From contig JAFSIV010000011.1 of the NCBI GenBank assembly GCA_017439585.1, positions 1-38,837 of the forward strand: a stretch of 38,837 nucleotides of DNA. The letters run 5' to 3'. Below the pieces are notes generated by a model that saw nothing but the letters and a program-made list of their open reading frames with translations, was not told where the DNA came from and did not search any database. The position numbers and the translations under genes were made by a program. Source of the DNA: Clostridia bacterium. Lineage in GTDB: Bacteria > Bacillota > Clostridia > Oscillospirales > Acutalibacteraceae. Within the stretch, counting starts at the first letter, position 1, and the number at the start of each line of letters is the position of its first letter. This document shows positions 14,381-36,988 of this stretch, piece after piece.

Positions 14381-14430
14381 TTTTAAAAGGGTAATTTCAA
14401 GAAATCAACTCTTGAAATTACCCTTTTTTA
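14381..14430. terminator. Bidirectional intrinsic terminator
   Basis: An 18-bp perfect stem (14385-14402 with 14410-14427, core GGGTAATTTCAAGA) is flanked by A-runs on the left and T-runs on the right. It can end both the plus-strand cytidylate-kinase-like gene and the minus-strand operon that finishes with the MgtC-like gene. Confidence 0.92.
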
Positions 14431-14441: not shown

Positions 14442-15131
14442 CTACATAGCAATATCCTTTAAAAACATTGCAACGCTACTGATTTCGCAAACCTTCTTTT
14501 TTATTTCCGAGAAATACTGTTGACCGTGCAAAACAAATATTATTCCAACATTTTGACTGTTTCCGCTCTTTGCGGGTATAATATTATATGAAATAACTGC
14601 ATTTTTATAACTATATATAAGGTCTACCACCTGCTCGGTTTCAGCAATATCAGTAAGCTCTAAATATACATTTATTATATTCTTTTCCTTATGTTCAAGT
14701 CTGCTCAAAATTGTAACACTGAAAATACATATAAATGTTGCAACAATCGCGCCAACATAGAAGCCATAACCTGCGGCTATTCCTATTGCGGCGGTTGCCC
14801 ACATACCTGCGGCAGTGGTAAGTCCCGTAATAATAGAACTGTTGCGCACCATAATAGTTCCTGCACCCAAAAAGCCTATACCTGAAATAACCTGAGCCGA
14901 AATTCTTGCAATATCGCCGCCTGAACCTAAGGTCTCGCTTAAAAACATACTTGTAACAGAGGACATTGCTGCGCCAACACAAATAAGTATATGAGTTCTA
15001 AGTCCCGCAGGTCGTCCGTGTCTTCCTCTTTCAGAACCTATAAGACCGCCAAGTAGCGTTGCCAATAGCAATCTGAGTATCGCGGTTACAGAATTAAATT
15101 CAAGTAAATAATCATAAATTTGTTCTAACAT
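14442..15131 (-). CDS. MgtC/SapB family membrane protein
   Basis: Protein of 229 residues with an N-terminal membrane domain of about four to five helices and a soluble ACT-like C-terminal part (about 150-229). The family signature LLGGLIGSERGRHGRPAGLRTH is present near residue 27, shown here only in part. MgtC-family proteins relate to magnesium limitation and membrane energetics; some regulate the ATP synthase. It is the last gene of the long leftward operon, 19 nt after the HAD gene. Its link to the catabolic genes is not obvious, and it may be a passenger. Confidence 0.88.
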   Translation of the reverse strand: MLEQIYDYLLEFNSVTAILRLLLATLLGGLIGSERGRHGRPAGLRTHILICVGAAMSSVTSMFLSETLGSGGDIARISAQVISGIGFLGAGTIMVRNSSIITGLTTAAGMWATAAIGIAAGYGFYVGAIVATFICIFSVTILSRLEHKEKNIINVYLELTDIAETEQVVDLIYSYKNAVISYNIIPAKSGNSQNVGIIFVLHGQQYFSEIKKKVCEISSVAMFLKDIAM

Positions 15132-15150
15132 TTTTCGGCTTATCTCCTAT

Positions 15151-15765
15151 CTAAATTTCTAAATAACTTTTAAGCTTTTGAGCATATCCGTCAAACAAAT
15201 ATCCAAAAATTTCTTCTTGAAGCGATGCAGAAACATTTTTCTCATTATCGTCAATAAAAACCGTATCGCCAGGATTTAAATTATATTCATTTAAAATATA
15301 TCTGAATATTTCTTTGTTTGGCTTAGTTATTCCAAGCGGTGCAGAAAATACTAAACCATCAAATAAATTTAAAATTTCTGACATATTAGAAACATTTTCA
15401 TATTCCTTTGCAAAGGTATCGCTTATATTCGAAAGCAAATAAAGCTTTCCGCCTTTTTTCTTTATTTCTTTAATAAGCTCAGGCATACCCTCTATGAATT
15501 CTAAGTTCTTATACCAATTATCATAAACCTTGCAAGCATCAGTATGAAGTTCTTTTGGAAGCCTCTTACAAATACCTTTTCTAACCTCTTCATCAGTTAT
15601 GGTTCCTGCATCTAATCTATCCCAATAAAGTCTGTCAAAAACAACCTCTTCTACCATTTTAACATCTTGCGGTTTTATATAAACAGATGTCATATACTCG
15701 GTATCAAACTTAACTATAACCTGACCGAAATCAAATATAAAGTTTTTAAATTTTAAATTATTCAT
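15151..15765 (-). CDS. HAD-superfamily hydrolase (subfamily IA)
   Basis: Phosphatase-like protein of 204 residues. Motif I is FDFGQV with nucleophile D12; the second aspartate of the classic DxD is glycine, as in YihX-type alpha-glucose-1-phosphate phosphatases, so the variant need not mean inactivity. Motif II is LLSNIS, a lysine lies in ITKPNKEIF, and motif IV is FIDDNEKNV. The ribosome binding site is AAGGA. It lies 18 nt after the PHP gene. A sugar-phosphate substrate is plausible but inferred only from the family and the operon. Confidence 0.85.
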   Translation of the reverse strand: MNNLKFKNFIFDFGQVIVKFDTEYMTSVYIKPQDVKMVEEVVFDRLYWDRLDAGTITDEEVRKGICKRLPKELHTDACKVYDNWYKNLEFIEGMPELIKEIKKKGGKLYLLSNISDTFAKEYENVSNMSEILNLFDGLVFSAPLGITKPNKEIFRYILNEYNLNPGDTVFIDDNEKNVSASLQEEIFGYLFDGYAQKLKSYLEI

Positions 15766-15783
15766 TTTAAAATCCTTACAATT

Positions 15784-16788
15784 TTATTTATCCAAGAAAT
15801 ATGCATTAGAATAGCATACCGAGCCATCCATACCGACAACGGTTACTCTAACATATTCGTCTTCATCATAATCTATCTCGAAGCTTCCGCTTGTAACCGC
15901 AGTTCCGTCTTCATTATAGATATGCTTAGCGTGTCTAATAGCGGTATTAAATAATATTCTTCTGGCTTCACTGGTTTCAACATGCATAACTCCGTCTTCA
16001 ATATAAAGACTCTTAATTTCAGGTCCGTTTGTTGCATAGAAATTACCTTTTTTAAGGCTTTCGCAAATATCCTTATAAGTAAGCTTCGGTGCTCTGATAA
16101 CAGTCCAAGCCACTCCGGCATCGGTTGCGCGATGATTATCGTCTCCTGCAACAGCAAAAATCTTTTTACCCTGTCTCAAAAACAGTTCAAAATCACGATG
16201 ATTAAATTCAAACTGACCGTCTATAATAAATGAACCGCCGTTAATTAACTCCATCGCATCCATTTCTTCATAAGTACCATATTGCTCAAAGGTTTCAAGC
16301 GACCAAGCAGGATGATTATATGTAACAAAAAATCCCTTTTCTTTGCATTTTCTCATAAATTCCCTAACCGTTTCGGGATTATATACTCTATCAAAATCAG
16401 GCTCATTTTCATCATATTTTACGAGCTCTCGGCTAGACTCAGGAGCATAATATAAATATTCTGTTCTATGAAAACAAGGCTGATTAACTATATTTTCATC
16501 AAGAGCAATCATACATAAATGGGTTGTTCTTCTTTTTCTTCTTTTTTCATTTAAATCTATAAACTCAGCTTCAAAACCGTTTAAAGCTAAAAAGCTTTCG
16601 TCAGACAATTCCTTATGGTGCGGAATAAAAACATCATGGTCAGTATAAGCCACAATACTATAACCGAGTTTTTTGTACTGTTCTTTTACTTCTTGTGGTG
16701 TTAATCTTGCGTCTGAAAGAGTGGTGTGACAATGCAAATTTGCACGATAATCATTACCTGTTTCGCTTAAAATAAATTCTTTTGCCAT
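15784..16788 (-). CDS. PHP-domain metal-dependent phosphoesterase
   Basis: Protein of 334 residues with the PHP metal motif near the N-terminus (H19-C-H21, then D26), AYTDHD, a central NHPAW and a late GDDNHRA. These are metal-ligand motifs of the PHP fold, which hydrolyses phosphomonoesters or cyclic phosphates. The C-terminal 70 residues look beta-rich. It lies between the GRE activase (20 nt upstream) and the HAD phosphatase, so the operon encodes three different phosphoesterases. This suggests a phosphorylated substrate or product. Confidence 0.83.
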   Translation of the reverse strand: MAKEFILSETGNDYRANLHCHTTLSDARLTPQEVKEQYKKLGYSIVAYTDHDVFIPHHKELSDESFLALNGFEAEFIDLNEKRRKRRTTHLCMIALDENIVNQPCFHRTEYLYYAPESSRELVKYDENEPDFDRVYNPETVREFMRKCKEKGFFVTYNHPAWSLETFEQYGTYEEMDAMELINGGSFIIDGQFEFNHRDFELFLRQGKKIFAVAGDDNHRATDAGVAWTVIRAPKLTYKDICESLKKGNFYATNGPEIKSLYIEDGVMHVETSEARRILFNTAIRHAKHIYNEDGTAVTSGSFEIDYDEDEYVRVTVVGMDGSVCYSNAYFLDK

Positions 16789-16808
16789 AATAAAAACTCC
16801 TATTTAGC

Positions 16809-17564
16809 TTATAATTTATATTCCATACCAAGCATTTTATATTTAGCTCCCGCCATAGAATTATAAGGAATTTCCTCAAAACTGCTATCGCCTATTATTT
16901 CCTTTATAGCCGTTAAATTTTCTTTTGTATCGGTTATATTGGGAATCAGCGGTGTTCTTATAATATAAGGCTTACCGCTGTTTTTAAGTATTTCAAAATT
17001 AGCAAGAATTTGTTCATTATAAACACCTGTATACTCTTTATGCTTTAAAGTATCAGCTATCTTTATATCCATTATAATGAAATCTAGCTTTTCTATTACC
17101 TTTTTAAAAATTTCGGTTTCAGCATAACCCGAAGTTTCAATGCATAGATTATAACCCTTTAATTTATCGCAAAGCTCCGATAAAAATTCAGCCTGCATTA
17201 AAGGCTCGCCGCCCGAAAATGTAAAACCTCCAAAGGTATCACCTAAAACATTTGCAGATTGTTTTAGTTCTTCTGCAAGCTCGTTCACAGTAACATCTCT
17301 GCCAACAATTTCGAGGCAGTTTTCAGGACAAGCGTGAATACATTGTCCAAACGGTTTACATTCAGGATGGTCGCACTCGGTCTGACAGTTTTTACAGCCT
17401 ATACATCTTATTTCCTTATACATAAGCTGAGGTTTCATACTCAATCCCTCAGGATTATGACACCAACGGCACCTTAATGGGCAGCCCTTAAAAAACACGG
17501 TTGTTCTAATACCCGGTCCGTCATGCACCGCCATCTCTTTAATATCAAATATAGTTGCTTTCAT
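16809..17564 (-). CDS. Glycyl-radical enzyme activating protein (radical SAM)
   Basis: Radical SAM protein of 251 residues that would abstract hydrogen from the glycine of the neighbouring GRE. The SAM-cluster cysteines are C28, C32 and C35 (GCPLRCRWC), preceded by DGPGIRTTVF. An inserted ferredoxin-like domain holds C54, C57, C60, C64, C75, C79 and C83 and likely binds two auxiliary Fe-S clusters, as in activases of dehydratase-type GREs. The GGE motif is FSGGEP. It starts 3 nt after the SGNH gene with no good ribosome binding site, so it probably depends on coupled translation. Confidence 0.93.
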   Translation of the reverse strand: MKATIFDIKEMAVHDGPGIRTTVFFKGCPLRCRWCHNPEGLSMKPQLMYKEIRCIGCKNCQTECDHPECKPFGQCIHACPENCLEIVGRDVTVNELAEELKQSANVLGDTFGGFTFSGGEPLMQAEFLSELCDKLKGYNLCIETSGYAETEIFKKVIEKLDFIIMDIKIADTLKHKEYTGVYNEQILANFEILKNSGKPYIIRTPLIPNITDTKENLTAIKEIIGDSSFEEIPYNSMAGAKYKMLGMEYKL

Positions 17565-17567
17565 ATT

Positions 17568-18323
17568 TTAAAGAAACATCATCTTAACAGCGCGAGCATT
17601 ATATTCGCCTATTTTTTTAGCACCATTCACATTAGGATGCAACCCGTCTATTAAATCTCTGCCGTTTTCTCCTAATTTTTCGTATATACCGCAAATACCG
17701 CAGTTAAATGTATCAATAAACTCAACATCCGAAATTATATCGCATACACTTGCCATTAAATTTCTTTTATAAAGAATTGAATTATACGGACGGATTTCTT
17801 CAACCGCTTGTATTGGCGAACAGAAGCAAATCTTGGCATTAGGATATAATCTGTCTAAATTTTCATAAATATATCTCATCGCACCCGGCCAGGTGTAACA
17901 ATCCACTTCCTCAGAAGGCAATATAAAACCCTCTGTAACAAATTGTTCTTCAATCGCATCTATATCGCATTTTTCCTTAGTGAAGGTATCATTAGTACCT
18001 GCGGCAATAAAAATCAAATCAAATGCTTCAAAGTCGGGATTATAAGAATAGTTTTTATTATTCGGGTCTTTTGCTCTTAAAACCTTCTCTACCTGATTAC
18101 AAACAACATTTTGGTCATAATCTGTATTATCGCCTAAAAATACAGGGTTACCGTCAAACTCAACCTCTTCGTTGTTTGATAGTCTAGCTCCGTTAACCGC
18201 AAGATTAACAAATAAGGAAGGCTCGATTATTTCGTTAAAATACTTAACCCAACCTCTGTCCGTTGTGTTTAATGCAGTTATGCTATCGCCTAAAAACAAA
18301 ATTCTTTTATTCTTATAACTCAT
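17568..18323 (-). CDS. SGNH/GDSL-family hydrolase
   Basis: Esterase-like protein of 251 residues. Block I is FLGDSIT with nucleophile S14, block III is AAGTNDT, and block V is DGLHPN with the catalytic D/H pair. There is no signal peptide, so it acts in the cytoplasm. It is placed between the GRE and the GRE activase, so it is probably part of the same pathway, perhaps removing an acyl group from the substrate. The AGAGGTT ribosome binding site overlaps the GRE stop codon region. Confidence 0.87.
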   Translation of the reverse strand: MSYKNKRILFLGDSITALNTTDRGWVKYFNEIIEPSLFVNLAVNGARLSNNEEVEFDGNPVFLGDNTDYDQNVVCNQVEKVLRAKDPNNKNYSYNPDFEAFDLIFIAAGTNDTFTKEKCDIDAIEEQFVTEGFILPSEEVDCYTWPGAMRYIYENLDRLYPNAKICFCSPIQAVEEIRPYNSILYKRNLMASVCDIISDVEFIDTFNCGICGIYEKLGENGRDLIDGLHPNVNGAKKIGEYNARAVKMMFL

Positions 18324-18334
18324 AATTTTAACCT

Positions 18335-20317
18335 CTATACAGTATAAGTTTGTCTTGAAATTACATGGTCTTGATATTCTTTATCAAGCTCAACAAAATA
18401 AGCACTCCAACCCCAAATACGAACAACTAATTGTCTATAATTTTCAGGGTGAATTTGAGCATCTTTCAGTTTATCAATATTAACGGCATTAAGCTGCAAT
18501 TGATGACCGCCTTTATCAATAAATGCTTTAACAAGCATACCAACCTTTTCAACGCTTTCTTCATCAGTAAACAAGGACTGATGGAATTCAAGGGTTAGCG
18601 GGCCTCCGTTTATCGCTCTTTCAAAATGAGGCTTGGTCATTGAGCCTATAACCGAAACCGGACCTTTAACATTAGCAAAAAGACTAACCGAGAAGTTAGT
18701 TCCGAGCGGTTCGCCCTTTCTTCTGCCATCAGGAGAAGCACCGAGCTCATCAGCGTGCCATAAATAATACATAGCACTGCCTGTTCCCGCTCTGAAAATT
18801 CCACCGCGCTCGTTCTTTTTACCCTCTAAGGCATTTGCAAAAGAATCAAGCAAGCAAACCGCAATACTATCAACATAATCATCGTTATTTCCAACCTTAG
18901 GACTTTCAAAACGAAGCTTATGCAAGAAAACACTGTCATTTTCGAAATCACAGTCTACCGCTTTAATATAATCCTCTTTTGAAATTGATTTTTCCTCGAA
19001 AACATATTTCTTAATAGCGGCAAGGCTATCAGCAGCGGTTGCAATACCTGTTCCGTGAATACCGTAGTTATTATATTTACCGCCGTTATAAATATCGCAA
19101 TCCATAACAACATTCATAAAAGGCGACGGAATAAACCAAAGATTTTCAAGTCCCTTGCAGATTTCATCGCATTGATTTTGAATTCTAAGTTCAACCGCTT
19201 TATAAAAATCTTCATAAGTTTGAGAAGCTTCTAAATCTTTATGAAAAGCCTCATCAACCGCCCTTGCGTAAGATAAAGCGCCTATATTAGCAACATCTGC
19301 ACCAACAAAGGGCACTATAAATTCCCAACAAGCCGCAACGGTATAATTGGTTGCATCCTCATGAGAATATCCCAATTTTTCAAGAGCAGGTATAACAATA
19401 TCATCATTTGAATACTGAGGGAAGCCCAAGCCTGCTTTGGTTAAATAGCTTGCCTTAGTATATATTTCCTTAGTTGTATTTTTATTAACTCTCAAATTGA
19501 TTTTAGGGTCGATAAGCAAATTGTTTTCGCTGGCTTTAAGGCATAGCTCTGACAAGGTATTAAACACCTCGTCACCCTTTTCATCTATACCGCCAAGCAT
19601 CATACTTTGACCGTTATCACCCTGCTGAACTCCAACATATAAATCGCTATCCTTATTAAAGGAAAGGAAAAAATCCTCCAATAGCTCTAACGCGGTTTCA
19701 TAGGTTAAAACACCGTTATCCATATCGGCTTTAAGATATGGATACATATATCGGTCAAAACGGCCAACAGTATTATGATAATTTCCTTCCAACCATAATG
19801 AATAATGGATAATACGGAAGAACTGCAAAGCCTCTCGGAAGTTTCTTGCCTTGTATCTCGGCACCTGAGTTAAAACCTCAACTAAATCTGCTCTACCCTG
19901 CTTTTTAGCTTCTTCTAAATACTTATCAGAAAGAGCAATAATATTATCTATTGCGCGCTTGCCGTATTCGTCGGCAGTTTCGCGTTTTGCTAAAAGACCG
20001 TTAGCAATAGCATCATAATAGTTAGGAGAAAGGTTAGACATAAAGCCTAATTCATGAATATGATGCTTCTTGTTTATTTCTGCCCACTCACTGTCAGTAA
20101 AAATCGCGGGAAGATTTGAAACAGTGCGCAAAAAACAGATTTGCTCATTTTCTAAAATAACCGCTTTTTCCTCATTACATAATTTTTCAAAACGGTCTGC
20201 CATACGCTCAATAGGACTTAAATTCTTAGCAGCATATTCGCTTGCTAAATCCCAATCAACAGTATGACGGTATTTATGATGTTCTTTCGAAATGATAAAG
20301 TTTAACAAACCACTCAT
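18335..20317 (-). CDS. Uncharacterised glycyl radical enzyme (PFL/dehydratase superfamily)
   Basis: Radical enzyme of 660 residues, much shorter than PFL, CutC or glycerol dehydratase (about 750-850). The glycyl site is RIWGWSA with G636; the usual RVxGYSA has its tyrosine replaced by tryptophan. The thiyl site is AACWE, with C330 followed by E332. A cysteine with glutamate two residues later is the dehydratase/lyase pattern, not the double cysteine of pyruvate formate-lyase. GQSMMLGG and GRFDRYMYPYL are further family segments. The gene has a good AAGGAG site and sits in an operon with its activase, an MFS transporter and several hydrolases. The substrate is unknown; a polyol, sugar or related C-O/C-N bond cleavage is my inference. 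Confidence 0.9.
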   Translation of the reverse strand: MSGLLNFIISKEHHKYRHTVDWDLASEYAAKNLSPIERMADRFEKLCNEEKAVILENEQICFLRTVSNLPAIFTDSEWAEINKKHHIHELGFMSNLSPNYYDAIANGLLAKRETADEYGKRAIDNIIALSDKYLEEAKKQGRADLVEVLTQVPRYKARNFREALQFFRIIHYSLWLEGNYHNTVGRFDRYMYPYLKADMDNGVLTYETALELLEDFFLSFNKDSDLYVGVQQGDNGQSMMLGGIDEKGDEVFNTLSELCLKASENNLLIDPKINLRVNKNTTKEIYTKASYLTKAGLGFPQYSNDDIVIPALEKLGYSHEDATNYTVAACWEFIVPFVGADVANIGALSYARAVDEAFHKDLEASQTYEDFYKAVELRIQNQCDEICKGLENLWFIPSPFMNVVMDCDIYNGGKYNNYGIHGTGIATAADSLAAIKKYVFEEKSISKEDYIKAVDCDFENDSVFLHKLRFESPKVGNNDDYVDSIAVCLLDSFANALEGKKNERGGIFRAGTGSAMYYLWHADELGASPDGRRKGEPLGTNFSVSLFANVKGPVSVIGSMTKPHFERAINGGPLTLEFHQSLFTDEESVEKVGMLVKAFIDKGGHQLQLNAVNIDKLKDAQIHPENYRQLVVRIWGWSAYFVELDKEYQDHVISRQTYTV

Positions 20318-20345
20318 ATTCTTATAATCTCCTTAAATTCATAAT

Positions 20346-21551
20346 TTAAGCTTCTTTTATTCGTTTATTTATAAAAATGCTTATAACCGAACCGATAACT
20401 CCAACAAGCATAATTAAAACCCAAGAAATTATAACCCCGTTCCAATTTGAGAAGGAGGCAAAAAATGCATTAAGCATAGCCGCGGCGGCATAACCCGAAA
20501 AATCGAATACACCGTTGCCGGTTGAAACACTGCCGTATTTTGCGAGACTCGGTATATAAATACTCCAAAGCACCGTTGAAGCGCAGCCGGTTGTAATCTT
20601 AGCCAAAGCAAAAAGCAAAATGTTAAGAATCGGTATCCCTTTTGTGAAAATAAGCAAAAGGAAAAAGAAAGCAGAAAGCGCAAACATTAAAGCTTCAAGC
20701 TTTATATAGTCCTTAAAAAATCTATGATATATGAAAATACAAACAAACGGAGCTACTAAATTAAGAAGCGAAATCACCGAGAAAACTCCTGCGCTCATTT
20801 TCTGCGAAAGCTCTAAATATTCAGTCATATAAGTGGGTATCCAGAAGGTAATCGAAGATGTTGCTATCTCAACAATGGCAGCAACAAGCAAGAAAAAAAC
20901 GAAATTTGGAATAAAAAACAGATTTTTAAGCCCTTTAAAAATGTTTTCTTTTTTACTCTTAAAAGTTATAATTCCTTTCCTTTCAAGCACAGAAAAATAG
21001 AAAAAAGAGCCTATGCCCATAACCAGCGCAAATATAGCTGTTACATAAAACACCCATTGCCACTTAAACACAATAGCCAGTAAACTCGCAAGCAAAGGAC
21101 CTGCAAATGAAGCTACCGAAAATAAAACGCAGACCGTTTCAGCCGCAGTTGAAGACATATTCTCTGCAATAATTTTCATTAAAGGACCTCTGAGCATTGA
21201 AAGACCAAATCCGAGCATTGCAAAAGAGGCAATATTTAGAATAGGGTTATTCCAAACAGGAAATAACAACATTCCGCTGCCTGCAATAAGGCAACCTATT
21301 AAAATCATATATTTAGAGCGTATTCTATCGCCCAAAACTCCGTTTAAAAGCTGACCTATGGCATATACCGCAAAATATACGGTTGAAAATAATCCAAGCT
21401 CCGACTTTGTATAAATCTTTTCTTCAACAAGAGTCGGGGTTACAACACTTGTTATATTTCTTGAAAGATAGCTTACCAAATATGTAAAAATACAAATTGA
21501 ACCGATTTTAGCCGAGCTTTTAAACATATTATTCGTTTTAGTTAAAGACAT
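20346..21551 (-). CDS. MFS transporter
   Basis: Twelve-helix permease of 401 residues. The loop 2-3 motif GVLGDRIRSKY is clear, and a long charged loop lies near 200 between the two halves. The N-terminal SYLSRNITSVVTPTLVEE segment is reminiscent of the organophosphate:phosphate antiporter group (GlpT/UhpT-like), though I cannot settle this by eye. It is the second gene of the GRE operon, 28 nt upstream of the GRE, so it probably imports the GRE substrate or a precursor. Confidence 0.87.
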   Translation of the reverse strand: MSLTKTNNMFKSSAKIGSICIFTYLVSYLSRNITSVVTPTLVEEKIYTKSELGLFSTVYFAVYAIGQLLNGVLGDRIRSKYMILIGCLIAGSGMLLFPVWNNPILNIASFAMLGFGLSMLRGPLMKIIAENMSSTAAETVCVLFSVASFAGPLLASLLAIVFKWQWVFYVTAIFALVMGIGSFFYFSVLERKGIITFKSKKENIFKGLKNLFFIPNFVFFLLVAAIVEIATSSITFWIPTYMTEYLELSQKMSAGVFSVISLLNLVAPFVCIFIYHRFFKDYIKLEALMFALSAFFFLLLIFTKGIPILNILLFALAKITTGCASTVLWSIYIPSLAKYGSVSTGNGVFDFSGYAAAAMLNAFFASFSNWNGVIISWVLIMLVGVIGSVISIFINKRIKEA

Positions 21552-21583
21552 TTTGCTTTTCGCCTTTCTGATGCGAAATCTTA

Positions 21584-22663
21584 TTAATTAAATTTAATAA
21601 CAGATTTTTCAGAAACATTTCCGTTGCTATCGCAAAATACCGTTTCTAATGAATCTTTTCCTATAATAAGACCGCAACCTAAATGAAAATCCTTTTTCTT
21701 ATCAGAGCCAACAATTAAGGTGCAAGGCTGACCCAAATGGTCATATTCACTTCCGATTTCAGATATAAAATAATCATGTAAATGCCCTGCCAGCATAATA
21801 TCAGGCTTAACCCCATCTTTTAAAAGACTAGCCCATTCAGAGTAAATTTCCTTTTCAATATCAAAGGGTGATTTTAGCAAAAGAGTAAACGGATTATGAC
21901 TTATAACCATTTTGCAGGTTATTCCCTCTTTTTCAAATTCCTTTGAAGCAATAATATCTTTTATAAACTCAATCTGACGCTTTCTGAAATCATGACAGCT
22001 AACAGTAAATCCGTATTCTGCATGACTGTCATCCTTATCCTCGCCGCAGTCTAGCACAATTCCCCAGATAGAGCCTACTTTGAATGAGTAATAAGTATTA
22101 CCTTTATCGTTTGGAGTGTATTCCGCCATACTTTCGGCAAAATAGCCTCTTAAATCGTGGTTTCCGCGAGAAAATACGGTTGGCTTCTCGCCATGAGTTA
22201 TCCTCTCTATTATCTCGTAAATAACATCGTAATTCTCAATAGCACCACTATGGTCGGGAATATCACCGTTTAAAATAAGCAAATCAATATTCCCAAAGGT
22301 TTCAGCCGCTTTTACAGGCTCATTTACCATATTATGAGTATCAGCAATATGATAAACTCTGGGGTTATCATAAGGCACAGGATAAAAATCAAACTCGGTT
22401 CTAACCGTTTCCTCGGTTTCGGGGAAATAAGGCTTACGGTCGATAATTTCCCGCTCGCAAACGGTGTATTTCCCAGCTTTATCCAAAACCTGTTGAGGCA
22501 CTGTAACTCTATGAATAGTGCAAATAGAACGCATTATTCCGTTTTGCTCATCGCAATAACGCTTTCCGTCTATCTCAACCCAAAACAAAGACGGTTTTGT
22601 TACAGGAACCATTATCTGATAATTATTACCCACCGCAAAAACCGCAGGAGAAGTTTTAAGCAT
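21584..22663 (-). CDS. Calcineurin-like metallophosphoesterase with N-terminal beta domain
   Basis: Protein of about 359 residues. The metal motifs are HIADTHN, LNGDIPDH, RGNHDLRG, VISHNP and LAGHLHD, in normal order. The first 110 residues look like a beta-sandwich as in purple-acid-phosphatase-type proteins. No signal peptide is seen. ATG at 22663 follows AAGGTGGGG; a GTG five codons earlier overlaps that site and is less likely. It is the first gene of the GRE operon, so a phosphodiester or phosphomonoester probably enters the pathway here. Confidence 0.87.
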   Translation of the reverse strand: MLKTSPAVFAVGNNYQIMVPVTKPSLFWVEIDGKRYCDEQNGIMRSICTIHRVTVPQQVLDKAGKYTVCEREIIDRKPYFPETEETVRTEFDFYPVPYDNPRVYHIADTHNMVNEPVKAAETFGNIDLLILNGDIPDHSGAIENYDVIYEIIERITHGEKPTVFSRGNHDLRGYFAESMAEYTPNDKGNTYYSFKVGSIWGIVLDCGEDKDDSHAEYGFTVSCHDFRKRQIEFIKDIIASKEFEKEGITCKMVISHNPFTLLLKSPFDIEKEIYSEWASLLKDGVKPDIMLAGHLHDYFISEIGSEYDHLGQPCTLIVGSDKKKDFHLGCGLIIGKDSLETVFCDSNGNVSEKSVIKFN

Positions 22664-22710
22664 AAAATAACACCCCACCTTATAACTAAAAAACTATATT
22701 ATATAAGCAT

Positions 22711-22739
22711 ATTATAAATTATTGTTAATTTATTGTCAA
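22711..22739 (-). promoter_or_regulatory. Consensus promoter of the eight-gene GRE operon
   Basis: Minus-strand -35 TTGACA (22734-22739), 17-nt spacer, -10 TATAAT (22711-22716), a perfect sigma-A match about 45 nt upstream of the metallophosphoesterase start. The eight genes downstream have gaps of 3 to 32 nt and no internal terminator, so this is likely their common promoter. No operator-like palindrome is evident here. Confidence 0.85.
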
Positions 22740-22778: not shown

Positions 22779-24014
22779 CTATATTTTTTCAATCTCATTT
22801 GAAAGAGCTATATAAACGCCTGCCGTCCAACCCATCATTTCAACCTTTGCCTGAGTTTTATATTCAGGGTTTGCAACCTTACCGGTAACACCGTCGTACT
22901 TCTCCCAGAAGCAATCGGTTTCCTCGTAATTTGCCTCAACAAGCTTAACATACTTAGTTGCAATTCTAAGTGCTTCTTCGTCATAACCGTAATTTTTAAG
23001 AGCAATATACATAACAAACTGCAAGGGTGCCCAAACATTAGGATAATCCCATTGGAAGCTCAAACAGTTTTCCTTAACACCGCAAGCCACGCCATATTCC
23101 TGTTCTAAATCTTTAAGGAGCTTAACGGTGCTTTCAGCCTCCTTACTGCTTGCCATATTAACAAACATTGGGAAAAAGCTTGCAATACTTTTATATTTAG
23201 AAAACTCATTTTTATCGAAATCAAAGTCCATAAAAAGACCTTCATTTTTGTTCCATAAAATTTCTCTAACCTTTTTAACTCTTAAATCGCGTCGCTCACT
23301 CCAAAGCTCTTCCTCGCCAAGACCTAAAATTTCTGAAAATACCCTCATATTCTCCTCAAAATCATAAATAAGCGCATTTAAATCTATCGCATTGAAATGG
23401 TGACCGCGATTTACAAAACGAGACGAGCAATCCCAACCGCATTCGTAAATCGAAAAAGCGGCAAGACAGTTTTCCTTTTTCTGCTCATCGGTAACAATAT
23501 CCTCTAAATTGAGCTTACAGCGAACGCAAAATCTCTCTAAGGTTTTTTCGGGGTCTCCCTCTTTAACCTCAAAGCCTAAATAACCGTTTAATCCGTTAGG
23601 AGCTACTTTATCGGTCTGCCAGAATTTATATTCCTTAACAAGAGTTTTATAGGCAGCCAAAAGCCAATCCTTATCCTTTGTAACCTCAAAAACGTCTCGC
23701 ACCATTCTTGATAAAAAGGGAGGTTGCGAGCGATTTAAATAATAAGTTCTGTTTCCGTTTGGCATATGACCGAATTTCTCAACCATATAAAGCATATTAT
23801 CAATATTGCTTTTAGCATAGGAAACCTTTCCTAGCATTATCATACCAATATTTGAAAAATATGTATCCCAATAATAAATTTCTTGGAAATGGTCGCCAAC
23901 GCAAGGCACAGTGTATTCAAAGGGAAGCCCTATAAGTGTGCCCTCGTCCTTTGGAGAATATCTTACCGTTTTATCAATATTTTCAGTTACAAATTTTTTG
24001 ATTTTTTCGTTCAT
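22779..24014 (-). CDS. GH37 trehalase-like glycoside hydrolase
   Basis: Alpha/alpha-barrel hydrolase of 411 residues. Both GH37 signatures are present in modified form: GDHFQEIYYWDTYF (40-53) and QWDYPNVWAP (321-330). The catalytic acid is D195 in ECGWDCSSRF, and the base matches E371 in FWEKYDG, both aligning with E. coli trehalase. It is shorter than TreA (about 550) and has no signal peptide, so it would cleave trehalose or a related alpha-glucoside inside the cell. It is the third gene of the glycosidase operon, 11 nt after the GH36 gene, with a GGTG-type ribosome binding site. Confidence 0.86.
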   Translation of the reverse strand: MNEKIKKFVTENIDKTVRYSPKDEGTLIGLPFEYTVPCVGDHFQEIYYWDTYFSNIGMIMLGKVSYAKSNIDNMLYMVEKFGHMPNGNRTYYLNRSQPPFLSRMVRDVFEVTKDKDWLLAAYKTLVKEYKFWQTDKVAPNGLNGYLGFEVKEGDPEKTLERFCVRCKLNLEDIVTDEQKKENCLAAFSIYECGWDCSSRFVNRGHHFNAIDLNALIYDFEENMRVFSEILGLGEEELWSERRDLRVKKVREILWNKNEGLFMDFDFDKNEFSKYKSIASFFPMFVNMASSKEAESTVKLLKDLEQEYGVACGVKENCLSFQWDYPNVWAPLQFVMYIALKNYGYDEEALRIATKYVKLVEANYEETDCFWEKYDGVTGKVANPEYKTQAKVEMMGWTAGVYIALSNEIEKI

Positions 24015-24025
24015 TTATATCACCA

Positions 24026-26203
24026 TTATTTTTTCTTTAAAACAATAATTTTGCTGGCATAATCTCTATCGGGATGAATTTTAATTCCAAATTGGCTTAA
24101 AAATTCGCCTGAATATTCTTTGCCGTTTTCATCGGTATAAATAGCCGCCAAATCCAAGCCTTTAAGCTTAGCATACTTATATGCATTATTAGGTCTGCCA
24201 CGCATAACATAAACACAAACGATAACGGTGTTTTCATCCTCAGATATAAACTGATTAACCGCAACATCACTGTTTTCAGGTGTTATAATGCGGTATAAAT
24301 CGCCGTTATGGAAAACATCAGCAAGCTTATGATAGGTCTTGATCTGCTCCTTAACTGCTTCCTTTTCCTCGTTTGATAAGATACCTAAATTAAGCTCATA
24401 GCCTAGCTGACCGCAAATTGCAACATCCCCTCTGAATTTAATTGGGGTTGTTCTAAAAACTTGATGGTTAGGAACAGCCGAAACATGAGCACCCATAGCA
24501 GAATAAGGGTAGCAAAGACTTGTTCCATACTGTATATCTATTCTTTCTAAACCGTCCGAATCGTCGCTGGTCCAAATCTGAGGCATATAGTATAAGATAC
24601 CGGGGTCAAAACGACCGCCACCTCCTGAGCAGCCCTCAAACAACACATTCGGGAAATTAGAGGTTAAATATTCCATTATGTCATAAAGACCGAGCATATA
24701 TCTGTGAGCTATCTCACCCTGTTTTTCACCGCTGAATGCAGGCGAGCCAAACTCGGTTATATATCTGTTCATATCCCACTTGATATACGAAATATTAACG
24801 GTTGAAAGAATTTCGCTCATAAAGCCTTTAACATAATCGCAAACCTCAGGTCTTGATAGGTCGAGTACTAACTGGCTTCTGCCGAGGGTTCTATCTCTGC
24901 CCCCTTGATGCAAGCACCAATCGGGATGCTCTCTATAAAGGTTGCTATCGGGAGAAACCATTTCAGGCTCAAACCAAAGACCAAATTTAAGTCCCTCATT
25001 ATTTACCTTTTCAGCCAATCCCTTAACTCCGTTCGGAAGCTTTCTTATGTCAGGAGTCCAGTCTCCCAAGGAACAGTCATCCTGGTCGCGTTTTCCAAAC
25101 CAACCGTCATCCAAAACCATAAGCTCAACGCCGAGCTCGGCGGCACTCTTGGTTATATCAAGAATTTTTTCCTCATTAAAATCAAAATATGTAGCTTCCC
25201 AGTTATTTATTAAAACAGGGCGCTTAATGTCTCGATATGCACCTCTGCAAAGCCTTGTTCTATAAAGCTTATGGAACTTTCTGGACATTTCGCCCAAACC
25301 GTTATTACTATAAACCAATACAGCCTCAGGAGTAGAAAAGGTTTCACCCTTTTCTAAAACCCAAGAAAAACCGATTGGGTTAATACCCATAAACGCGCGG
25401 GTTATATCATAATCCTCTTTTTGCACACCTGCAACAAAATTACCTGAATACACAAGGTTAAAGCCATATGCCTCTCCGTATTCCTCATTTGCTTCGGGAG
25501 AAACCAATGCAATAAAAGGATTATGAATATGCGAGCTTGTTCCCCTTATACTTTCAACCTGCATTGTTCCGCTTTTAACATAGGTTCTTTGCGGCTTGCG
25601 CTCTCTTGCCCAAACACCCGATAAATGAATAAAATCAAATTCCTTGCTATCGAAATCAACCGTCATACTCAAAGCCTTATTTAAACGGTAAGGCTTATCG
25701 GCGGTGTTCTCAAAAACAACCGCTCTGGTAATAACATTAAAATCCTCGTAAACACCGTAAAGCAAGGTAACCTTTAATCCCGAATAGGAATCTAAAAGGT
25801 GAATTTTGAGAGTGTTAACCTTATCGCCCTCCTCAGCATAAACCGAAGGCATACCCTCTACCTTATACTTTCCGTCTATTATCTCATAAGAATCGAATTT
25901 AAGGTTGGAAGCAGTGGTAAACTCACCGTCAACACCGTAAAAAGCGGGTGTTCTGAAATCGCCTCTGCCATATTCAGAATACTCCATTGTTAAATCATTA
26001 GAAGACATTTTCTTTCCGTTCCACATAATGTCGGTAGAAGAAAAGGTTCTTGTATAATTAACTGCGAGCATATCCTCCAAAGCAGGAACGCACTTTATAG
26101 CCTTGCCCCAATATAAATTTAATAATTTGCCCTCAAAAATGCCGATAACATAACTTGTATCGCGGGTTTTTAAATGAAAAAGATTGTTATTAAAAGTAAT
26201 CAT
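24026..26203 (-). CDS. GH36 alpha-galactosidase
   Basis: Protein of 725 residues that releases alpha-linked galactose from melibiose, raffinose or stachyose. The N-terminal beta-sandwich covers about 1-320. The barrel has NNWEATYFD, LDDGWFGKRD and GLWFEPEM. Nucleophile D477 lies in YIKWDMNR, and the acid/base aspartate is in TSDDSD (545-550). No signal peptide, so it is cytoplasmic. The ATG at 26203 has GAGGAG 7 nt upstream; the longer in-frame start at 26218 would put that site inside the gene. It lies 11 nt after the first GH36 gene. Confidence 0.95.
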   Translation of the reverse strand: MITFNNNLFHLKTRDTSYVIGIFEGKLLNLYWGKAIKCVPALEDMLAVNYTRTFSSTDIMWNGKKMSSNDLTMEYSEYGRGDFRTPAFYGVDGEFTTASNLKFDSYEIIDGKYKVEGMPSVYAEEGDKVNTLKIHLLDSYSGLKVTLLYGVYEDFNVITRAVVFENTADKPYRLNKALSMTVDFDSKEFDFIHLSGVWARERKPQRTYVKSGTMQVESIRGTSSHIHNPFIALVSPEANEEYGEAYGFNLVYSGNFVAGVQKEDYDITRAFMGINPIGFSWVLEKGETFSTPEAVLVYSNNGLGEMSRKFHKLYRTRLCRGAYRDIKRPVLINNWEATYFDFNEEKILDITKSAAELGVELMVLDDGWFGKRDQDDCSLGDWTPDIRKLPNGVKGLAEKVNNEGLKFGLWFEPEMVSPDSNLYREHPDWCLHQGGRDRTLGRSQLVLDLSRPEVCDYVKGFMSEILSTVNISYIKWDMNRYITEFGSPAFSGEKQGEIAHRYMLGLYDIMEYLTSNFPNVLFEGCSGGGGRFDPGILYYMPQIWTSDDSDGLERIDIQYGTSLCYPYSAMGAHVSAVPNHQVFRTTPIKFRGDVAICGQLGYELNLGILSNEEKEAVKEQIKTYHKLADVFHNGDLYRIITPENSDVAVNQFISEDENTVIVCVYVMRGRPNNAYKYAKLKGLDLAAIYTDENGKEYSGEFLSQFGIKIHPDRDYASKIIVLKKK

Positions 26204-26214
26204 AAAAATTCTCC

Positions 26215-28122
26215 TCAATATTCCTTAAAAATAAGTTTCCTGTTTTCAACAAAAGCGTACTCGCCTTTTTCTAATGGTTTAAATTCACCATCCAAAAACT
26301 CATAAGTTTTTGGTGAAATAAATTTATCAGTTTTGCCTATAACAGCATTTCCGTTTTTAAGCGGAACAATTATATATAACTTGCAGTCATCATAATCATT
26401 TAAGGTTATTTCGGTTTTATCCTCAATTTTTAAAATTTGAATAGTTTTTGAGAAATAATCATAAACCGCAAATTCTTCGCCATCAAGTCCCTCAATATCG
26501 CTCGGCGAAATCGTTCCCGAAACCGAAAGGTTATCTTTATTCAAATTAAATGCTTCTAATATTCCGCAACCGTTTGCAATATTCTGAATTTTAAATATTT
26601 TTTGATTGCAAGTAGGGTCTTCCAATAAACAGTCCTTGGTTGGAACACCGATACTGTCGCACATAAGGATTTTACCGTCTGCAAAAGTGAGCGGCTCTAA
26701 AATTTCCTTGCGGCTTCTATTACTTGTATCACTAACATAAATCGGTCCGCCGCTTATTGCTCTTAAAAGACTGTTTTTCATGCCCTGAGAATCATCAGTC
26801 CACCACATATCCCAATCAGGATAATAAAACTGACCTTGTACCAAGGTATTATAAGCACATTGAGTTATATGCTTAACAAACCATCCGCGGTCCTCGGGCT
26901 TGAAATCATCACTGCATCTTGAAATAGGACTAAGCGTTCTATTCCACATATCCTCGCTCGCCATTCCCATGCAGTTAATCATTTGGCTTTCAAAATGCTC
27001 TTTAACCGAAGCTTCCATAGCATTGTGGAACTGCCTTGAAGCAGAGCCAACCGAGGCTAGCTTTTTATAAAATCTTCGAGTCATACTCTGGTTATCTATT
27101 TTAACGAACTCTGCCCCGCAGTCCTTTAAATGATCGTGAAAAGCGTTATAAAATTTATAAGCCTTTTCTTCTTCAAAGGACGGAATATAAATTCCGCTTT
27201 CGGTTTTTATAAGCAAATCTTTATGCTCTTTAAAAATCTCGCCGTTTTCATCAATACCTGCCCAATACCCAGTCGTCGGGTGCCACATACCAACCGAAAT
27301 TCCGTATTCATTCATTTTATGTATGCAGGTTTTTAAACCGTTTGGGAAACGCCTCGGGTCTGCTTTAAAGGAATAAAGCTTAGACGAATGCATAAGTTTA
27401 AACATTTCCTCGCGGGTTTCGTAAGGGGCATCATAAAATTGCCTAACCTCAGCCCACATATCGTCAAGAATAGCCCATTTAACAGGGATTTCTTTTTCCT
27501 TAAATTCCTCGCATTTGGAAAGTAAATCCTCTTCGCTAACCCGAATCTGAAATGCATCCCAACTGCACCAACCGAGATATCTAAAAATTTCAGGATATTC
27601 CCTATCCTTGCGAAGCTTACAATTATTTCCTAAAAGCTTTACTGCAACCGAAACACATTTCTCAACTAACTCATAAGGGTTATCCCCCTCAGCAAAAACA
27701 AAGGAAAGCGCTTTAACCTTTTTAAGACCGTCAACCCAGCTATAAAGCCTAGCCTCTAATATGCCATTTTCGTTTCCTTCAAGGGTACATTTATAATCCT
27801 TGGAAACAACCGGCAATATAACCCCATAACTTCCGCTTGAATTTTGATAAAACAAGCATTGCGTGTTATTTGGAACATTCGAAATTTCAGTTCCAAACTC
27901 AGGAACACACCAAAATTCTATTTTTCTGAAATACGACATCCATTTAGTTACATTCAAATCCTCAATTTGAATTACCGCTCCAAGCTCGCTATCAATATTT
28001 TCTTCAATTTCGCCATCAAAATATACCGCAGATACACCGTCAACCGAGTCCATTCTATAAAAATTTGAAGATGAAAATTCCTCTTCCTTTGCCGAACGAA
28101 TATAAGCTTTCCTAATATTCAC
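26215..28122 (-). CDS. GH36 raffinose-synthase/Sip1-type glycosidase
   Basis: Protein of 635 residues resembling plant raffinose synthase and alkaline alpha-galactosidases. Visible motifs are GWCSWDAF, WAILDDMW, and FVKIDNQS with nucleophile D343; the acid/base is in SRCSDD (D405 or D406). It is a different GH36 branch from its neighbour and could hydrolyse or transfer galactose. The start is GTG at 28122, chosen because GAGGTG lies 6 nt upstream; a GTG three codons earlier falls inside that site. It is the first gene of the glycosidase operon and has a leader of roughly 175 nt. Confidence 0.88.
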   Translation of the reverse strand: MNIRKAYIRSAKEEEFSSSNFYRMDSVDGVSAVYFDGEIEENIDSELGAVIQIEDLNVTKWMSYFRKIEFWCVPEFGTEISNVPNNTQCLFYQNSSGSYGVILPVVSKDYKCTLEGNENGILEARLYSWVDGLKKVKALSFVFAEGDNPYELVEKCVSVAVKLLGNNCKLRKDREYPEIFRYLGWCSWDAFQIRVSEEDLLSKCEEFKEKEIPVKWAILDDMWAEVRQFYDAPYETREEMFKLMHSSKLYSFKADPRRFPNGLKTCIHKMNEYGISVGMWHPTTGYWAGIDENGEIFKEHKDLLIKTESGIYIPSFEEEKAYKFYNAFHDHLKDCGAEFVKIDNQSMTRRFYKKLASVGSASRQFHNAMEASVKEHFESQMINCMGMASEDMWNRTLSPISRCSDDFKPEDRGWFVKHITQCAYNTLVQGQFYYPDWDMWWTDDSQGMKNSLLRAISGGPIYVSDTSNRSRKEILEPLTFADGKILMCDSIGVPTKDCLLEDPTCNQKIFKIQNIANGCGILEAFNLNKDNLSVSGTISPSDIEGLDGEEFAVYDYFSKTIQILKIEDKTEITLNDYDDCKLYIIVPLKNGNAVIGKTDKFISPKTYEFLDGEFKPLEKGEYAFVENRKLIFKEY

Positions 28123-28296
28123 AAAAATCACCTCTGAGCCTATTCAGAAAATCAACAAAAATATGTTATATTTTAATGATTTACAACCTTTCCACCGAAA
28201 CAAACAAGAAAAAGGCAAAAAATCACTTATTTCCCCATAAAACATAGCTAAAAATCGTTACATTTCAAGCAATGAAACAAAAATACAACAAACTAC

Positions 28297-28318: not shown

Positions 28319-28334
28319 CGCTTCAAACTGTAAA
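28306..28334 (-). promoter_or_regulatory. Promoter of the glycosidase operon
   Basis: Minus-strand -35 TTTACA (28329-28334), 17-nt spacer, -10 TATAAT (28306-28311). It is about 180 nt upstream of the first glycosidase start codon and diverges from the AraC-type gene promoter. Confidence 0.75.
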
Positions 28335-28364
28335 TGTATTTTTGCGAATATATATATGGATTTT

Positions 28365-28393
28365 TTGGACAAAAAATGATACCATCATATTAT
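28365..28393 (+). promoter_or_regulatory. Promoter of the AraC-family gene
   Basis: Plus-strand -35 TTGGAC (28365-28370), 17-nt spacer, -10 TATTAT (28388-28393), followed by AGAGGA and the ATG at 28424. It is a moderate match to sigma-A consensus. Confidence 0.6.
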
Positions 28394-28423
28394 AAAATTT
28401 CTTGCAAAAAAGAGGAAAATTAT

Positions 28424-29233
28424 ATGAGAACAATTAAAAACGATTACATTCTTCCAAGCAAAAACAATTCCCCTATTCTGCATATAAACACCTGTGGATT
28501 ACAATCTTTTGACGATTCTTTAACCGTTATTAGAGAAAACGGCTCAAAAGATTTTCATTTGCTTTATATTAAAAGCGGTTACTGTACCGTTCATTTTAAA
28601 TCAGAGATCAGGAAGCTCAGAGCGGGTGAATTTGTGTTTTATTTCCCAAACACAAAGCAAAAATATATATTCCCTTCCTCCCGTTCTGAAAGCTATTTCC
28701 TCCATTTTGGCGGTAGTTCAGTCGAAAAAATTTTAACCGCATTAGATTTAAAAGAGGGTTTTCATAAATGCAATCAATTCTTTCATTTATATGAAAAGTT
28801 TGACAGTTTAATTGTTTCAAGCAACAAATCTTTGCCTCGTTTTTCAGTGCATTCAATCTCTTTGCTATTGGATATTTTATATTTAGTTTCAGAGAAAAAA
28901 TCTGATTATGATATTTCAAATATTAATAATTTAATAAACTATATTACTGCAAACCACGATAAGCTAATTGATTTTGAAAGTATCGCCAAAGAGTGCGGTC
29001 AAAGTCTTCATAAAATGATTATTTCCTTTAAAAATCAAACCGGTATGACACCTAAACAATTTCAAGAAAAAACGCGCATAAAAATCGCCAAAGATTACTT
29101 AGTTAGTTCAAATATAAATATATCTAAAATTTCAAAACTAGTGGGATATGAGGACCAACTTTATTTCAGCCGAGTTTTTAAAAGGCATACGGGTCTTTCC
29201 CCTAAAAACTATCGAACAAATCATTCTTCTTAA
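28424..29233 (+). CDS. AraC-family transcriptional regulator
   Basis: Regulator of 269 residues with an N-terminal cupin-like sensor domain (about 20-120, including RAGEFVFYFPN) and a C-terminal double helix-turn-helix. The latter includes FESIAKECGQS and the family signature VGYEDQLYFSRVFKRHTGLSPKNYR. It is divergent from the glycosidase operon and most likely activates it in response to an alpha-galactoside or trehalose-type sugar. The ATG at 28424 follows AGAGGA. An upstream in-frame start at 28334 is rejected because it would begin before the promoter's -10. Confidence 0.9.
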   Translation: MRTIKNDYILPSKNNSPILHINTCGLQSFDDSLTVIRENGSKDFHLLYIKSGYCTVHFKSEIRKLRAGEFVFYFPNTKQKYIFPSSRSESYFLHFGGSSVEKILTALDLKEGFHKCNQFFHLYEKFDSLIVSSNKSLPRFSVHSISLLLDILYLVSEKKSDYDISNINNLINYITANHDKLIDFESIAKECGQSLHKMIISFKNQTGMTPKQFQEKTRIKIAKDYLVSSNINISKISKLVGYEDQLYFSRVFKRHTGLSPKNYRTNHSS

Positions 29234-34454: not shown

Positions 34455-35246
34455 TTATTTTAATGCTAATTTTTGTAAAATTATATATTGATTGTATAAA
34501 TTCAATCTATCTTTTTCACTAAGATTAATATTCATTATTTTACCTCCTTTTACTTTAGTCCAAAAACGAAACATAATATATATAACAATTGGCGCTAAAT
34601 ATAAAATCACATGCCATATTCTATGGATTAAAATATTTAATTTTTGTACAGCAGGATTAATTTCCGCAAGATATATTTTAATTTCTTCTTGAATCAAAGC
34701 AAAAGACTCTTCACTCTGTTGAGTTAAAGCCTCCTGTTTATCTACTTCTAAGCATCCATTTTTGGGATTTATATTATATGATTTACATAAATTAAGAACT
34801 GCATAGTAAAAATCTAAATCATCTCGATATTCAACACTATCAATCAGATCTTCATATTCTATTTTAATTTCATCAAATTTTTTAGATTTATCTTCTTCAT
34901 TATTTATTTCGTTAACATCTGCTAATTTGCGTTTCAGTTTTTTTATTTTGCTAAGAGCATTTTCAACTACGCGAACTCTTTCAGAGTATCTAGAATTGCT
35001 GTTAATAATAGAATATATTAACACAATAACTGAAAGCACAATATTAAAAAAATCTACTAAATTATTGCAAAAATAATTAGGAAAAAATTTTAAAGAAAGT
35101 GAATAAACTATAATCATAATACTATAATAAATCAATACAAAACTTGCACGTTTATTAGCTTTAGAAAGTCTTTTCAACTGATGTGTAAAAACCAATTGTT
35201 TTTTCTTAATCATTCGATAATATTTTTCAGAATCATATTTTTTCAT
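34455..35246 (-). CDS. SLATT-type membrane protein, possible defence effector
   Basis: Protein of 263 residues. Two membrane helices near the N-terminus (about 35-54 and 66-82) are followed by RYSERVRVVENALSKIKKL and a charged helical region. A third hydrophobic segment is at about 208-229. This layout matches the SLATT family (SMODS/SLOG-associated two-TM effectors), most like SLATT_5. Such proteins are predicted to open or damage the membrane during antiphage responses. Here no nucleotidyltransferase, SLOG or reverse transcriptase gene is adjacent. The stop codon touches REP1b. The AAAGGAA site supports the start. Confidence 0.65.
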   Translation of the reverse strand: MKKYDSEKYYRMIKKKQLVFTHQLKRLSKANKRASFVLIYYSIMIIVYSLSLKFFPNYFCNNLVDFFNIVLSVIVLIYSIINSNSRYSERVRVVENALSKIKKLKRKLADVNEINNEEDKSKKFDEIKIEYEDLIDSVEYRDDLDFYYAVLNLCKSYNINPKNGCLEVDKQEALTQQSEESFALIQEEIKIYLAEINPAVQKLNILIHRIWHVILYLAPIVIYIMFRFWTKVKGGKIMNINLSEKDRLNLYNQYIILQKLALK

Positions 35247-35344
35247 AAAATTTAAATTCCTTTCTTATACAAATAAACATTTTTAGAATATGTTTTCCTA
35301 TAACGCATTATTTTAACTTTAATAATATGCCTTTTTCAAAAACA

Positions 35345-35413
35345 AAAACACCTACCGCTTTTTTATATAATAGAACGCTACCTATTATATAAAACGAAAG
35401 TGGTAAGTGTTTT
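35345..35413. other. Long imperfect palindrome downstream of the RAYT gene
   Basis: Two arms of about 30 nt (35345-35373 with 35382-35413), sharing AAAACAC, TACC and TATATAATAG, form a near-continuous hairpin with an 8-nt loop. On the minus strand it is followed by a T-rich run, so it can act as a terminator for the RAYT gene. It could also be a structure recognised by the transposase. Confidence 0.7.
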
Positions 35414-35440
35414 GTGACATAATTCGACATTTTCTGATTA

Positions 35441-36184: not shown

Positions 36185-36237
36185 TTCTATCACCCTATTT
36201 AAAATTAACATATCAAGTCGAAAATGTCAAGAAAAAA

Positions 36238-36825: not shown

Positions 36826-36904
36826 ATTTTTCACCCTACATTTCCATACCACACATGAAAATGCTTATATTTATCAAATAAAATAAAATCATAAACATGA
36901 TAAT

Positions 36905-36979: not shown

Positions 36980-36988
36980 CCTTCACTT

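What the first reader, a model, noticed from the sequence alone, without database searches (positions are those of the whole stretch)
14442..22739. Eight-gene operon built around an uncharacterised glycyl radical enzyme
One perfect promoter precedes a metallophosphoesterase, MFS permease, GRE, SGNH esterase, GRE activase, PHP phosphoesterase, HAD phosphatase and MgtC-like protein, with gaps of 3-32 nt. Several hydrolases around one radical enzyme suggest a pathway in which an ester- or phosphate-bearing compound is imported, trimmed and then cleaved or dehydrated by radical chemistry. I know of no described GRE pathway with this set.
Basis: partly seen in the sequence, partly recalled or inferred. 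Interest (0 to 1): 0.75.

Follow-up and report, generated by a model that had tools for sequence, protein, structure and literature searches.

The report
Radical enzyme operon of unknown function
A gut bacterium carries an operon around an oxygen-sensitive radical enzyme from a large, unstudied branch that sits beside plant-sugar-digesting genes and probably removes an oxygen from a sugar-like compound; which compound is not known.

Summary

The eight-gene set is not a conserved pathway. In 80 named loci only the activase is general (67 of 80). The recurring partners are a raffinose-synthase-like GH36 enzyme (13 loci within 4 kb, 1 at 4-10 kb), an SGNH esterase and, rarely, a related MFS permease. 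HAD and MgtC recur in none of these loci.

Best reading: a C-O eliminase (dehydratase type) acting on a sugar- or polyol-sized compound freed from plant alpha-galactosides and esters. The chemistry class is fairly likely; the substrate is unknown. New variant of a known kind.

The parts
22711..22739 (-). sigma-70 promoter, TTGACA-17 nt-TATAAT, 12 of 12
21584..22663 (-). metallophosphoesterase (calcineurin-like, ~100-residue N-terminal part before the domain); probable start ATG 22663
   Evidence: Pfam PF00149 1.3e-13; D-x-H, GD, GNHD, GHxH motifs; Shine-Dalgarno AGGTGGGG
20346..21551 (-). MFS permease, OPA/SLC37-like
   Evidence: PF07690; best NCBIfam match PgtP type, below cut-off; best solved relative SLC37A4, 2e-9
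18335..20317 (-). glycyl radical enzyme, 660 aa; Cys330-Trp331-Glu332, Gly636 in RIWGWSAYF
17568..18323 (-). SGNH/GDSL hydrolase
16809..17564 (-). GRE activase, radical SAM with CX3CX2C and ferredoxin-type cysteines
   Evidence: TIGR02494 260 bits, cut-off 174; motifs
15784..16788 (-). PHP/CehA-McbA-type metallohydrolase
   Evidence: NF038032 91.9 bits, cut-off 80
15151..15765 (-). HAD-IA phosphatase, YihX-like
   Evidence: PF00702 2.9e-12; 25% identity to E. coli YihX over 186 alignment columns
14442..15131 (-). MgtC-family membrane protein
   Evidence: PF02308 3e-38
14385..14427 (-). intrinsic terminator, 19-pair stem plus T tail; also terminator-like on the + strand
22779..24014 (-). trehalase/MGH1-like glycoside hydrolase, upstream run
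   Evidence: PF01204 5.7e-84
24026..26218 (-). GH36 alpha-galactosidase, upstream run
   Evidence: PF02065 7e-163
26215..28131 (-). raffinose-synthase/alkaline-alpha-galactosidase-like GH36 (RafS), the most recurrent hydrolase partner of this GRE clade
   Evidence: PF05691 6.7e-70; Arabidopsis 7exf 3e-62; linkage
28334..29233 (+). AraC-type regulator, divergent from RafS
   Evidence: PF12833, PF02311

Best explanation
The core is a two- to three-gene module: an activase, a compact GRE of an unstudied clade and, in some lineages, an SGNH esterase. In this genome the module has been joined with alpha-galactoside hydrolases and other hydrolases into an AraC-flanked region for plant-derived sugars. 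Shown by sequence: catalytic Cys330, Glu332, radical Gly636, GRE fold (model) and cognate activase. Inferred: the activase makes the Gly636 radical; it passes to Cys330; the thiyl radical takes H from a C-OH carbon of a polyhydroxylated substrate; Glu332 takes the hydroxyl proton; the neighbouring C-O bond breaks; and Cys330 returns H, giving a deoxy-ketone or deoxy-aldehyde (the dehydratase chemistry of glycerol, propanediol and 1,5-anhydrohexitol-6-phosphate GREs). The pocket is rebuilt for a different and probably larger substrate: the aromatic wall residue (Tyr339 of glycerol dehydratase, GDH) has no counterpart, the His of the usual GH motif (GDH His164, from memory) is Asn95, GDH Asp447 is Asn344, and tryptophans stand next to both radical residues. 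The substrate is most likely a sugar, sugar acid or polyol/cyclitol freed by the GH36 enzymes and the esterase.
Against: No activity or substrate data. 67 of the 80 loci have no RafS called within 4 kb, and many clade members are two-gene units with an AraC gene on the other strand, which points to no substrate. Co-occurrence across genomes is confounded by lifestyle: IolB (p 1.5e-6) and MPE (p 3e-7) also co-occur with the GRE with hardly any adjacency, and the own genome has no IolB match. A Cys-x-Glu loop also occurs in GRE decarboxylases (from memory). The conserved His181 cannot be used: MAFFT sets it on the Ser282 column of GDH-type enzymes (absent from 42 of 42 other GREs) but HMMER aligns it with GDH His281. 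In the tree the clade lies outside the fork holding the characterised eliminases that I included.
Confidence: 0.45

Rival explanations
1. The operon is mostly a local assembly: GRE plus activase do one reaction wherever they occur, and the metallophosphoesterase, MFS, PHP, HAD and MgtC genes are unrelated riders under one promoter.
For: Activase near the GRE in 67 of 80 loci, but PHP 2 near/2 far, MPE 4 near/2 far; no HAD or MgtC match in the named loci at E 1e-5; same-genus G186 has GRE-ACT alone while its MPE sits beside GH36 on another contig.
Against: Partly the same gene types recur in other orders around distant GREs: L062 (RafS, MFS, GRE, ACT, MPE), L065 (MPE, GRE, ACT, BD-FAE esterase, RafS, a different PHP protein), L060 (GRE, ACT, MFS, esterase, RafS).
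Confidence: 0.35
2. A GRE of another reaction class: decarboxylase or C-N/C-S/C-C lyase acting on an acid, amine, sulfonate or phenolic compound released by the esterase.
For: Cys-x-Glu is not specific to C-O cleavage (from memory); indoleacetate and hydroxyphenylacetate decarboxylase models also match (205 and 171 bits); esterases recur.
Against: Eliminase models and folds score higher. Pfam tallies of 171 of 179 selected neighbours show, in the 25 commonest families of each half (of 76 and 115), GDSL esterases, Raffinose_syn and glycosidases besides housekeeping genes, and no amine, sulfonate or aromatic pathway; rarer families were not shown.
Confidence: 0.15
3. Cyclitol route: RafS/GH36 free myo-inositol (or a methyl-inositol) from galactinol-type galactosides, phosphoesterases free it from phosphoinositides, and the GRE dehydrates the ring.
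For: RafS is closest among solved chains to an Arabidopsis galactinol-sucrose galactosyltransferase; L015 has IolB over cut-off plus PfkB and class II aldolase genes.
Against: Among my loci IolB is near the GRE in L015 only; own genome without an IolB match; PfkB is far below the IolC cut-off (90 against 300 bits).
Confidence: 0.1

Closest known systems
PflD / YbiW (1,5-anhydromannitol- and 1,5-anhydroglucitol-6-phosphate GREs)
   Same: GRE barrel, Cys-x-Glu loop, sugar-type C-O cleavage; PflD is top in Z (40.8 and 40.1, tied with glycerol dehydratase at 40.0)
   Different: 25-26% identity to PflD and 23% to YbiW over the aligned residues; N-terminus about 66 residues shorter before the pocket loop by medians; His column is Asn95; CWE and WGWS loops
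B12-independent glycerol dehydratase and propanediol dehydratase
   Same: Best sequence match among solved chains (236 and 235 bits); Cys433/Glu435 align with Cys330/Glu332
   Different: Tyr339 falls in a gap of ours, Asp447 aligns with Asn344 (alignment); His164 is Asn95 by motif (from memory)
[quoted passage not shown]
   Same: C-O eliminase fold and activase type; 278 bits
   Different: Far below cut-off 1100; no proline genes in the operon
Aminoacyl radical enzymes (PMC11528403)
   Same: Uncharacterised GRE homologues with varied neighbourhoods
   Different: Those replace the radical Gly by Ala, Ser or Thr; here Gly636 is kept in 93 of 93

Membership tests
Glycyl radical enzyme superfamily | C-terminal glycyl radical domain with the radical Gly | tested here: met
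   PF01228 70.1 bits, cut-off 22.2; Gly636 in 93 of 93
Glycyl radical enzyme superfamily | Catalytic Cys in the finger loop and GRE barrel fold | tested here: met
Glycyl radical enzyme superfamily | Cognate radical SAM activase | tested here: met
   TIGR02494 over cut-off; near in 67 of 80 loci
Glycyl radical enzyme superfamily | Glycyl radical formed in the protein | not testable with these tools
   Needs EPR
GRE eliminases (dehydratase type) | Cys-x-Glu catalytic loop | tested here: met
   Cys330-Trp331-Glu332; Glu in 93 of 93 of the clade and in 32 of 42 other GREs
GRE eliminases (dehydratase type) | Grouping with characterised eliminases | tested here: not met
   Own clade (SH-aLRT 99) outside the HypD/CutC/YbiW/PflD fork (88), quick method, long branches present
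HypD, CutC, HpfG/HpsG, IAD, HPAD | NCBIfam equivalog cut-off | tested here: not met
   171-278 bits against cut-offs of 1000-1150
Pyruvate formate-lyase | Cys-Cys in the active-site loop; TIGR01255 cut-off | tested here: not met
   AACWE instead of ACCVS; 82 bits against 994
Aminoacyl radical enzymes | Radical Gly replaced by Ala, Ser or Thr | tested here: not met
   Gly636 kept; definition from PMC11528403, passages and section 8 read
Raffinose synthase/alkaline alpha-galactosidase (PF05691) for 26215-28131 | Pfam cut-off | tested here: met
   236 bits, cut-off 20
OPA organophosphate antiporters for the MFS | Two phosphate-binding Arg (GlpT numbering from memory) | tested here: inconclusive
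   By eye one Arg kept, the second not; no alignment was run (sequence)

The most novel reading that the evidence does not exclude
A very large, uncharacterised GRE clade of gut anaerobes performs radical deoxygenation of unphosphorylated sugars, cyclitols or even intact glycosides. For a glycoside, H abstraction at C2 and expulsion of the aglycone at C1 would give a 1,5-anhydro-ketose: a radical glycoside lyase, that is, glycosidic-bond breakage without hydrolysis or phosphorolysis, coupled to plant alpha-galactoside use.
Probability: 0.12. Interest if true: 0.88.

Novelty: new variant of a known kind. Interest (0 to 1): 0.55.

Why it matters
GREs set much of anaerobic gut chemistry (choline to trimethylamine, hydroxyproline, sulfonates), and a review read in passages says many abundant ones have no known function (PMC11574389). 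This clade looks large: of the 7,998 candidates scored, 7,530 match at E <= 0.001 (a count that may include other GREs), and the 120 listed are 77-96% identical. Of the 80 best named loci, 37 have a gut site or feces in the title, of ruminants, horse and other herbivores where the host is named, and four records belong to strains: Ructibacterium gallinarum DSM 107454 (two), Acetatifactor muris DSM 23669 and bacterium 1xD8-48, so it can be tested. The double-tryptophan signature and the recurring link with a raffinose-synthase-like enzyme give a concrete handle.

Tried and rejected
Rejected: one conserved eight-gene pathway. Rejected as proof: genome-wide co-occurrence of MPE or IolB with the GRE, because they also co-occur with each other (MPE-IolB p 4e-5) and are rarely adjacent to it. 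Tried with no gain: Rfam scan, tRNAs only; solved relatives of SGNH and MPE by sequence, none convincing; SGNH model (pLDDT 73) matched many esterases, lipases and acetylesterases without deciding the substrate; paper searches listed no description of this clade that I could recognise, in a library that holds only CC0/CC BY/CC BY-SA papers. A deoxy-sugar route through a DeoC/LacD-family aldolase (L059, L134) is an idea only: that gene sits beside a different GRE.

Caveats on counts. The 80 named loci are the best 80 of 224 confirmed, and several are cut by contig ends. My ORF picking lost the GRE in four loci (L050, L063, L068, L077) and some neighbours: tblastn also shows RafS near the GRE in L077 and MPE about 3 kb from it in L069, which one search misses. 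In one search at most two RafS candidates per genome were scored. The 21 clade genomes are those with matches over 350 bits. In one search the 42 other GREs hold several near-duplicate HypD and CutC rows. Eight of 179 selected neighbours were left out of the Pfam tallies. AraC genes were tested in 10 of 27 cluster members, all AraC type. Genes of L053, L054 and others named by eye are not used as evidence.
Full report
OBSERVATION. Domain scans confirm the assignments. The promoter at 22739-22711 is a 12/12 sigma-70 match; perfect matches number 2 in the window against a mean of 0.02 in 100 Markov-1 windows. A hairpin terminator at 14427-14385 closes the unit. The first gene probably starts at ATG 22663, since the called GTG lies inside the Shine-Dalgarno sequence. 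Upstream, on the same strand and with no terminator called between, lies a second run: a raffinose-synthase-like GH36 (RafS), a GH36 alpha-galactosidase and a trehalase-like hydrolase, with an AraC regulator divergent from it. A near-identical record (L005; GRE 96%) keeps RafS-GH36-GHtre-MPE-MFS-GRE up to its contig end.

SIGNATURE. Of 137 distinct GREs of 600 aa or more in my loci, 95 have C-W in the cysteine loop and 93 of those also have W before the radical glycine (these two tryptophans were the selection). In the 93, Glu332, Asn95, Asn344, Gly233, Asp234, Gly236, Gln237 and Gly636 are invariant. In the 42 others (several of them near-duplicate HypD and CutC rows) the Asn95 column is His in 30, Asp in 6, Glu in 4 and Arg in 2. 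By the alignment, glycerol dehydratase Tyr339 falls in a gap of ours and Asp447 aligns with Asn344. That these, and His164, are substrate contacts in glycerol dehydratase is from memory. His181 is in 91 of 93, but its counterpart depends on the alignment. In a quick ML tree (92 rows) the clade is a 64-row set with SH-aLRT 99, outside the fork with HypD, CutC, YbiW and PflD (88); long branches exist nearby.

DISTRIBUTION. A protein search found 7,530 matches among the 7,998 candidates scored; the 120 listed are 77-96% identical and 118 of them are 659-664 aa. Of 391 class genomes, 21 have a match over 350 bits. Of the 80 best named loci, 37 have a gut site or feces in the title and 4 records belong to named strains.

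NEIGHBOURHOOD. I compared 0-4 kb from the GRE (551 kb in all) with 4-10 kb (623 kb) in the 80 loci. Activase: 72 genes near, 2 far, present near in 67 loci. RafS: 13 near, all same strand, 1 far (L005). SGNH: 6 near, 0 far, each of the 6 between GRE and activase, plus 7 near of a second tandem SGNH type in L034 and L036. MFS related to the window's: 4 near (L005, L060, L062, L069), 0 far. AraC: 25 near (21 on the other strand), 11 far; 10 of 10 tested are AraC type. LacI: 8 near, 3 far. Not clearly enriched: MPE 4/2, PHP 2/2, FGGY 3/3, GH36 4/3. HAD and MgtC of the window have no match in these loci. In 391 genomes RafS occurs in 17, with 11 of them among the 21 GRE genomes (p 5e-12), and 8 of 24 RafS copies lie 0.3-6.3 kb from the GRE. 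On the tree the RafS state changes at least 11 times over 37 rows and SGNH at least 5 times, so these links formed or broke repeatedly, with the caveat that rows cut by contig ends count as lacking them. Against this, MPE (8 of 17 genomes) and IolB (9 of 27) also co-occur with the GRE, MPE adjacent only in this genome and IolB not adjacent in these genomes, so lifestyle explains part of it.

CLUES TO SUBSTRATE. RafS is closest among solved chains to an Arabidopsis galactinol-sucrose galactosyltransferase (3e-62); the Arabidopsis alkaline alpha-galactosidase structure paper was seen only as a search-listing abstract (PMC9912918). In L015 (GRE 77%) one run holds GlcD-like, iron-sulfur, class II aldolase (ketose-bisphosphate aldolase subfamily over cut-off), PfkB kinase, IolB (219.6 bits, cut-off 205), aldose epimerase, DUF4867, FGGY kinase, an Etf-like protein, GRE, SGNH and activase. 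DUF4867 also stands between GRE and activase in L010. L060, L062 and L065 carry partly the window's gene types in other orders. All this fits sugar or polyol catabolism, but no single substrate. The own genome has no IolB match (87% complete), so the L015 route is not general.

MECHANISM. Shown: catalytic residues, modelled fold, activase. Inferred: radical transfer Gly636 to Cys330, H abstraction at a carbinol carbon, deprotonation by Glu332, C-O cleavage and H return. This is established chemistry for GRE dehydratases (from memory) and, as reported in PMC12441222 (passages), YbiW and PflD cleave 1,5-anhydrohexitol-6-phosphates to 1-deoxyfructose-6-phosphate. The rebuilt pocket suggests a larger substrate than glycerol.

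VERDICT. A real operon around a member of a GRE clade that the papers I could search do not describe and that is widespread in gut Clostridia.

Noticed in passing
Such arrays are outside the CWE/WGWS clade and have no explanation here.
   Followed up: partly
L143 7643-9820 (own genome G000:C2:57999-59807): A second CWE-type GRE in the window's own genome (GCWEI loop, RVSGWNARF glycine loop) with its own activase.
   Followed up: partly
L059 2-14747 (Ructibacterium gallinarum DSM 107454; same stretch as L134): Three GREs of three types in one run with a DeoC/LacD-family aldolase, GH43, a zinc alcohol dehydrogenase, an SMP-30/gluconolactonase-like protein, an FGGY kinase, two activases and RafS: possibly a deoxy-sugar pathway.
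   Followed up: partly
L015 217-13632: A run with IolB (over cut-off), PfkB kinase, class II aldolase, aldose epimerase, FGGY kinase, GlcD-like oxidase, Etf-like protein and DUF4867 next to the GRE module.
   Followed up: partly
window 13587-13559: A second perfect sigma-70 promoter, in front of a FAD-dependent oxidoreductase gene (DAO plus BFD-like [2Fe-2S] domains, 12063-13502).
   Followed up: no
window 34455-38648: A SLATT_5 protein, an IS200-like transposase and an RHS-repeat protein (the last below the Pfam cut-off for matched stretches) close together.
   Followed up: no
L034 5247-9881 and L036 6723-9889: Three to four tandem SGNH-like paralogues directly upstream of the GRE; the two tested match Lipase_GDSL_2 just below its cut-off.
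   Followed up: partly
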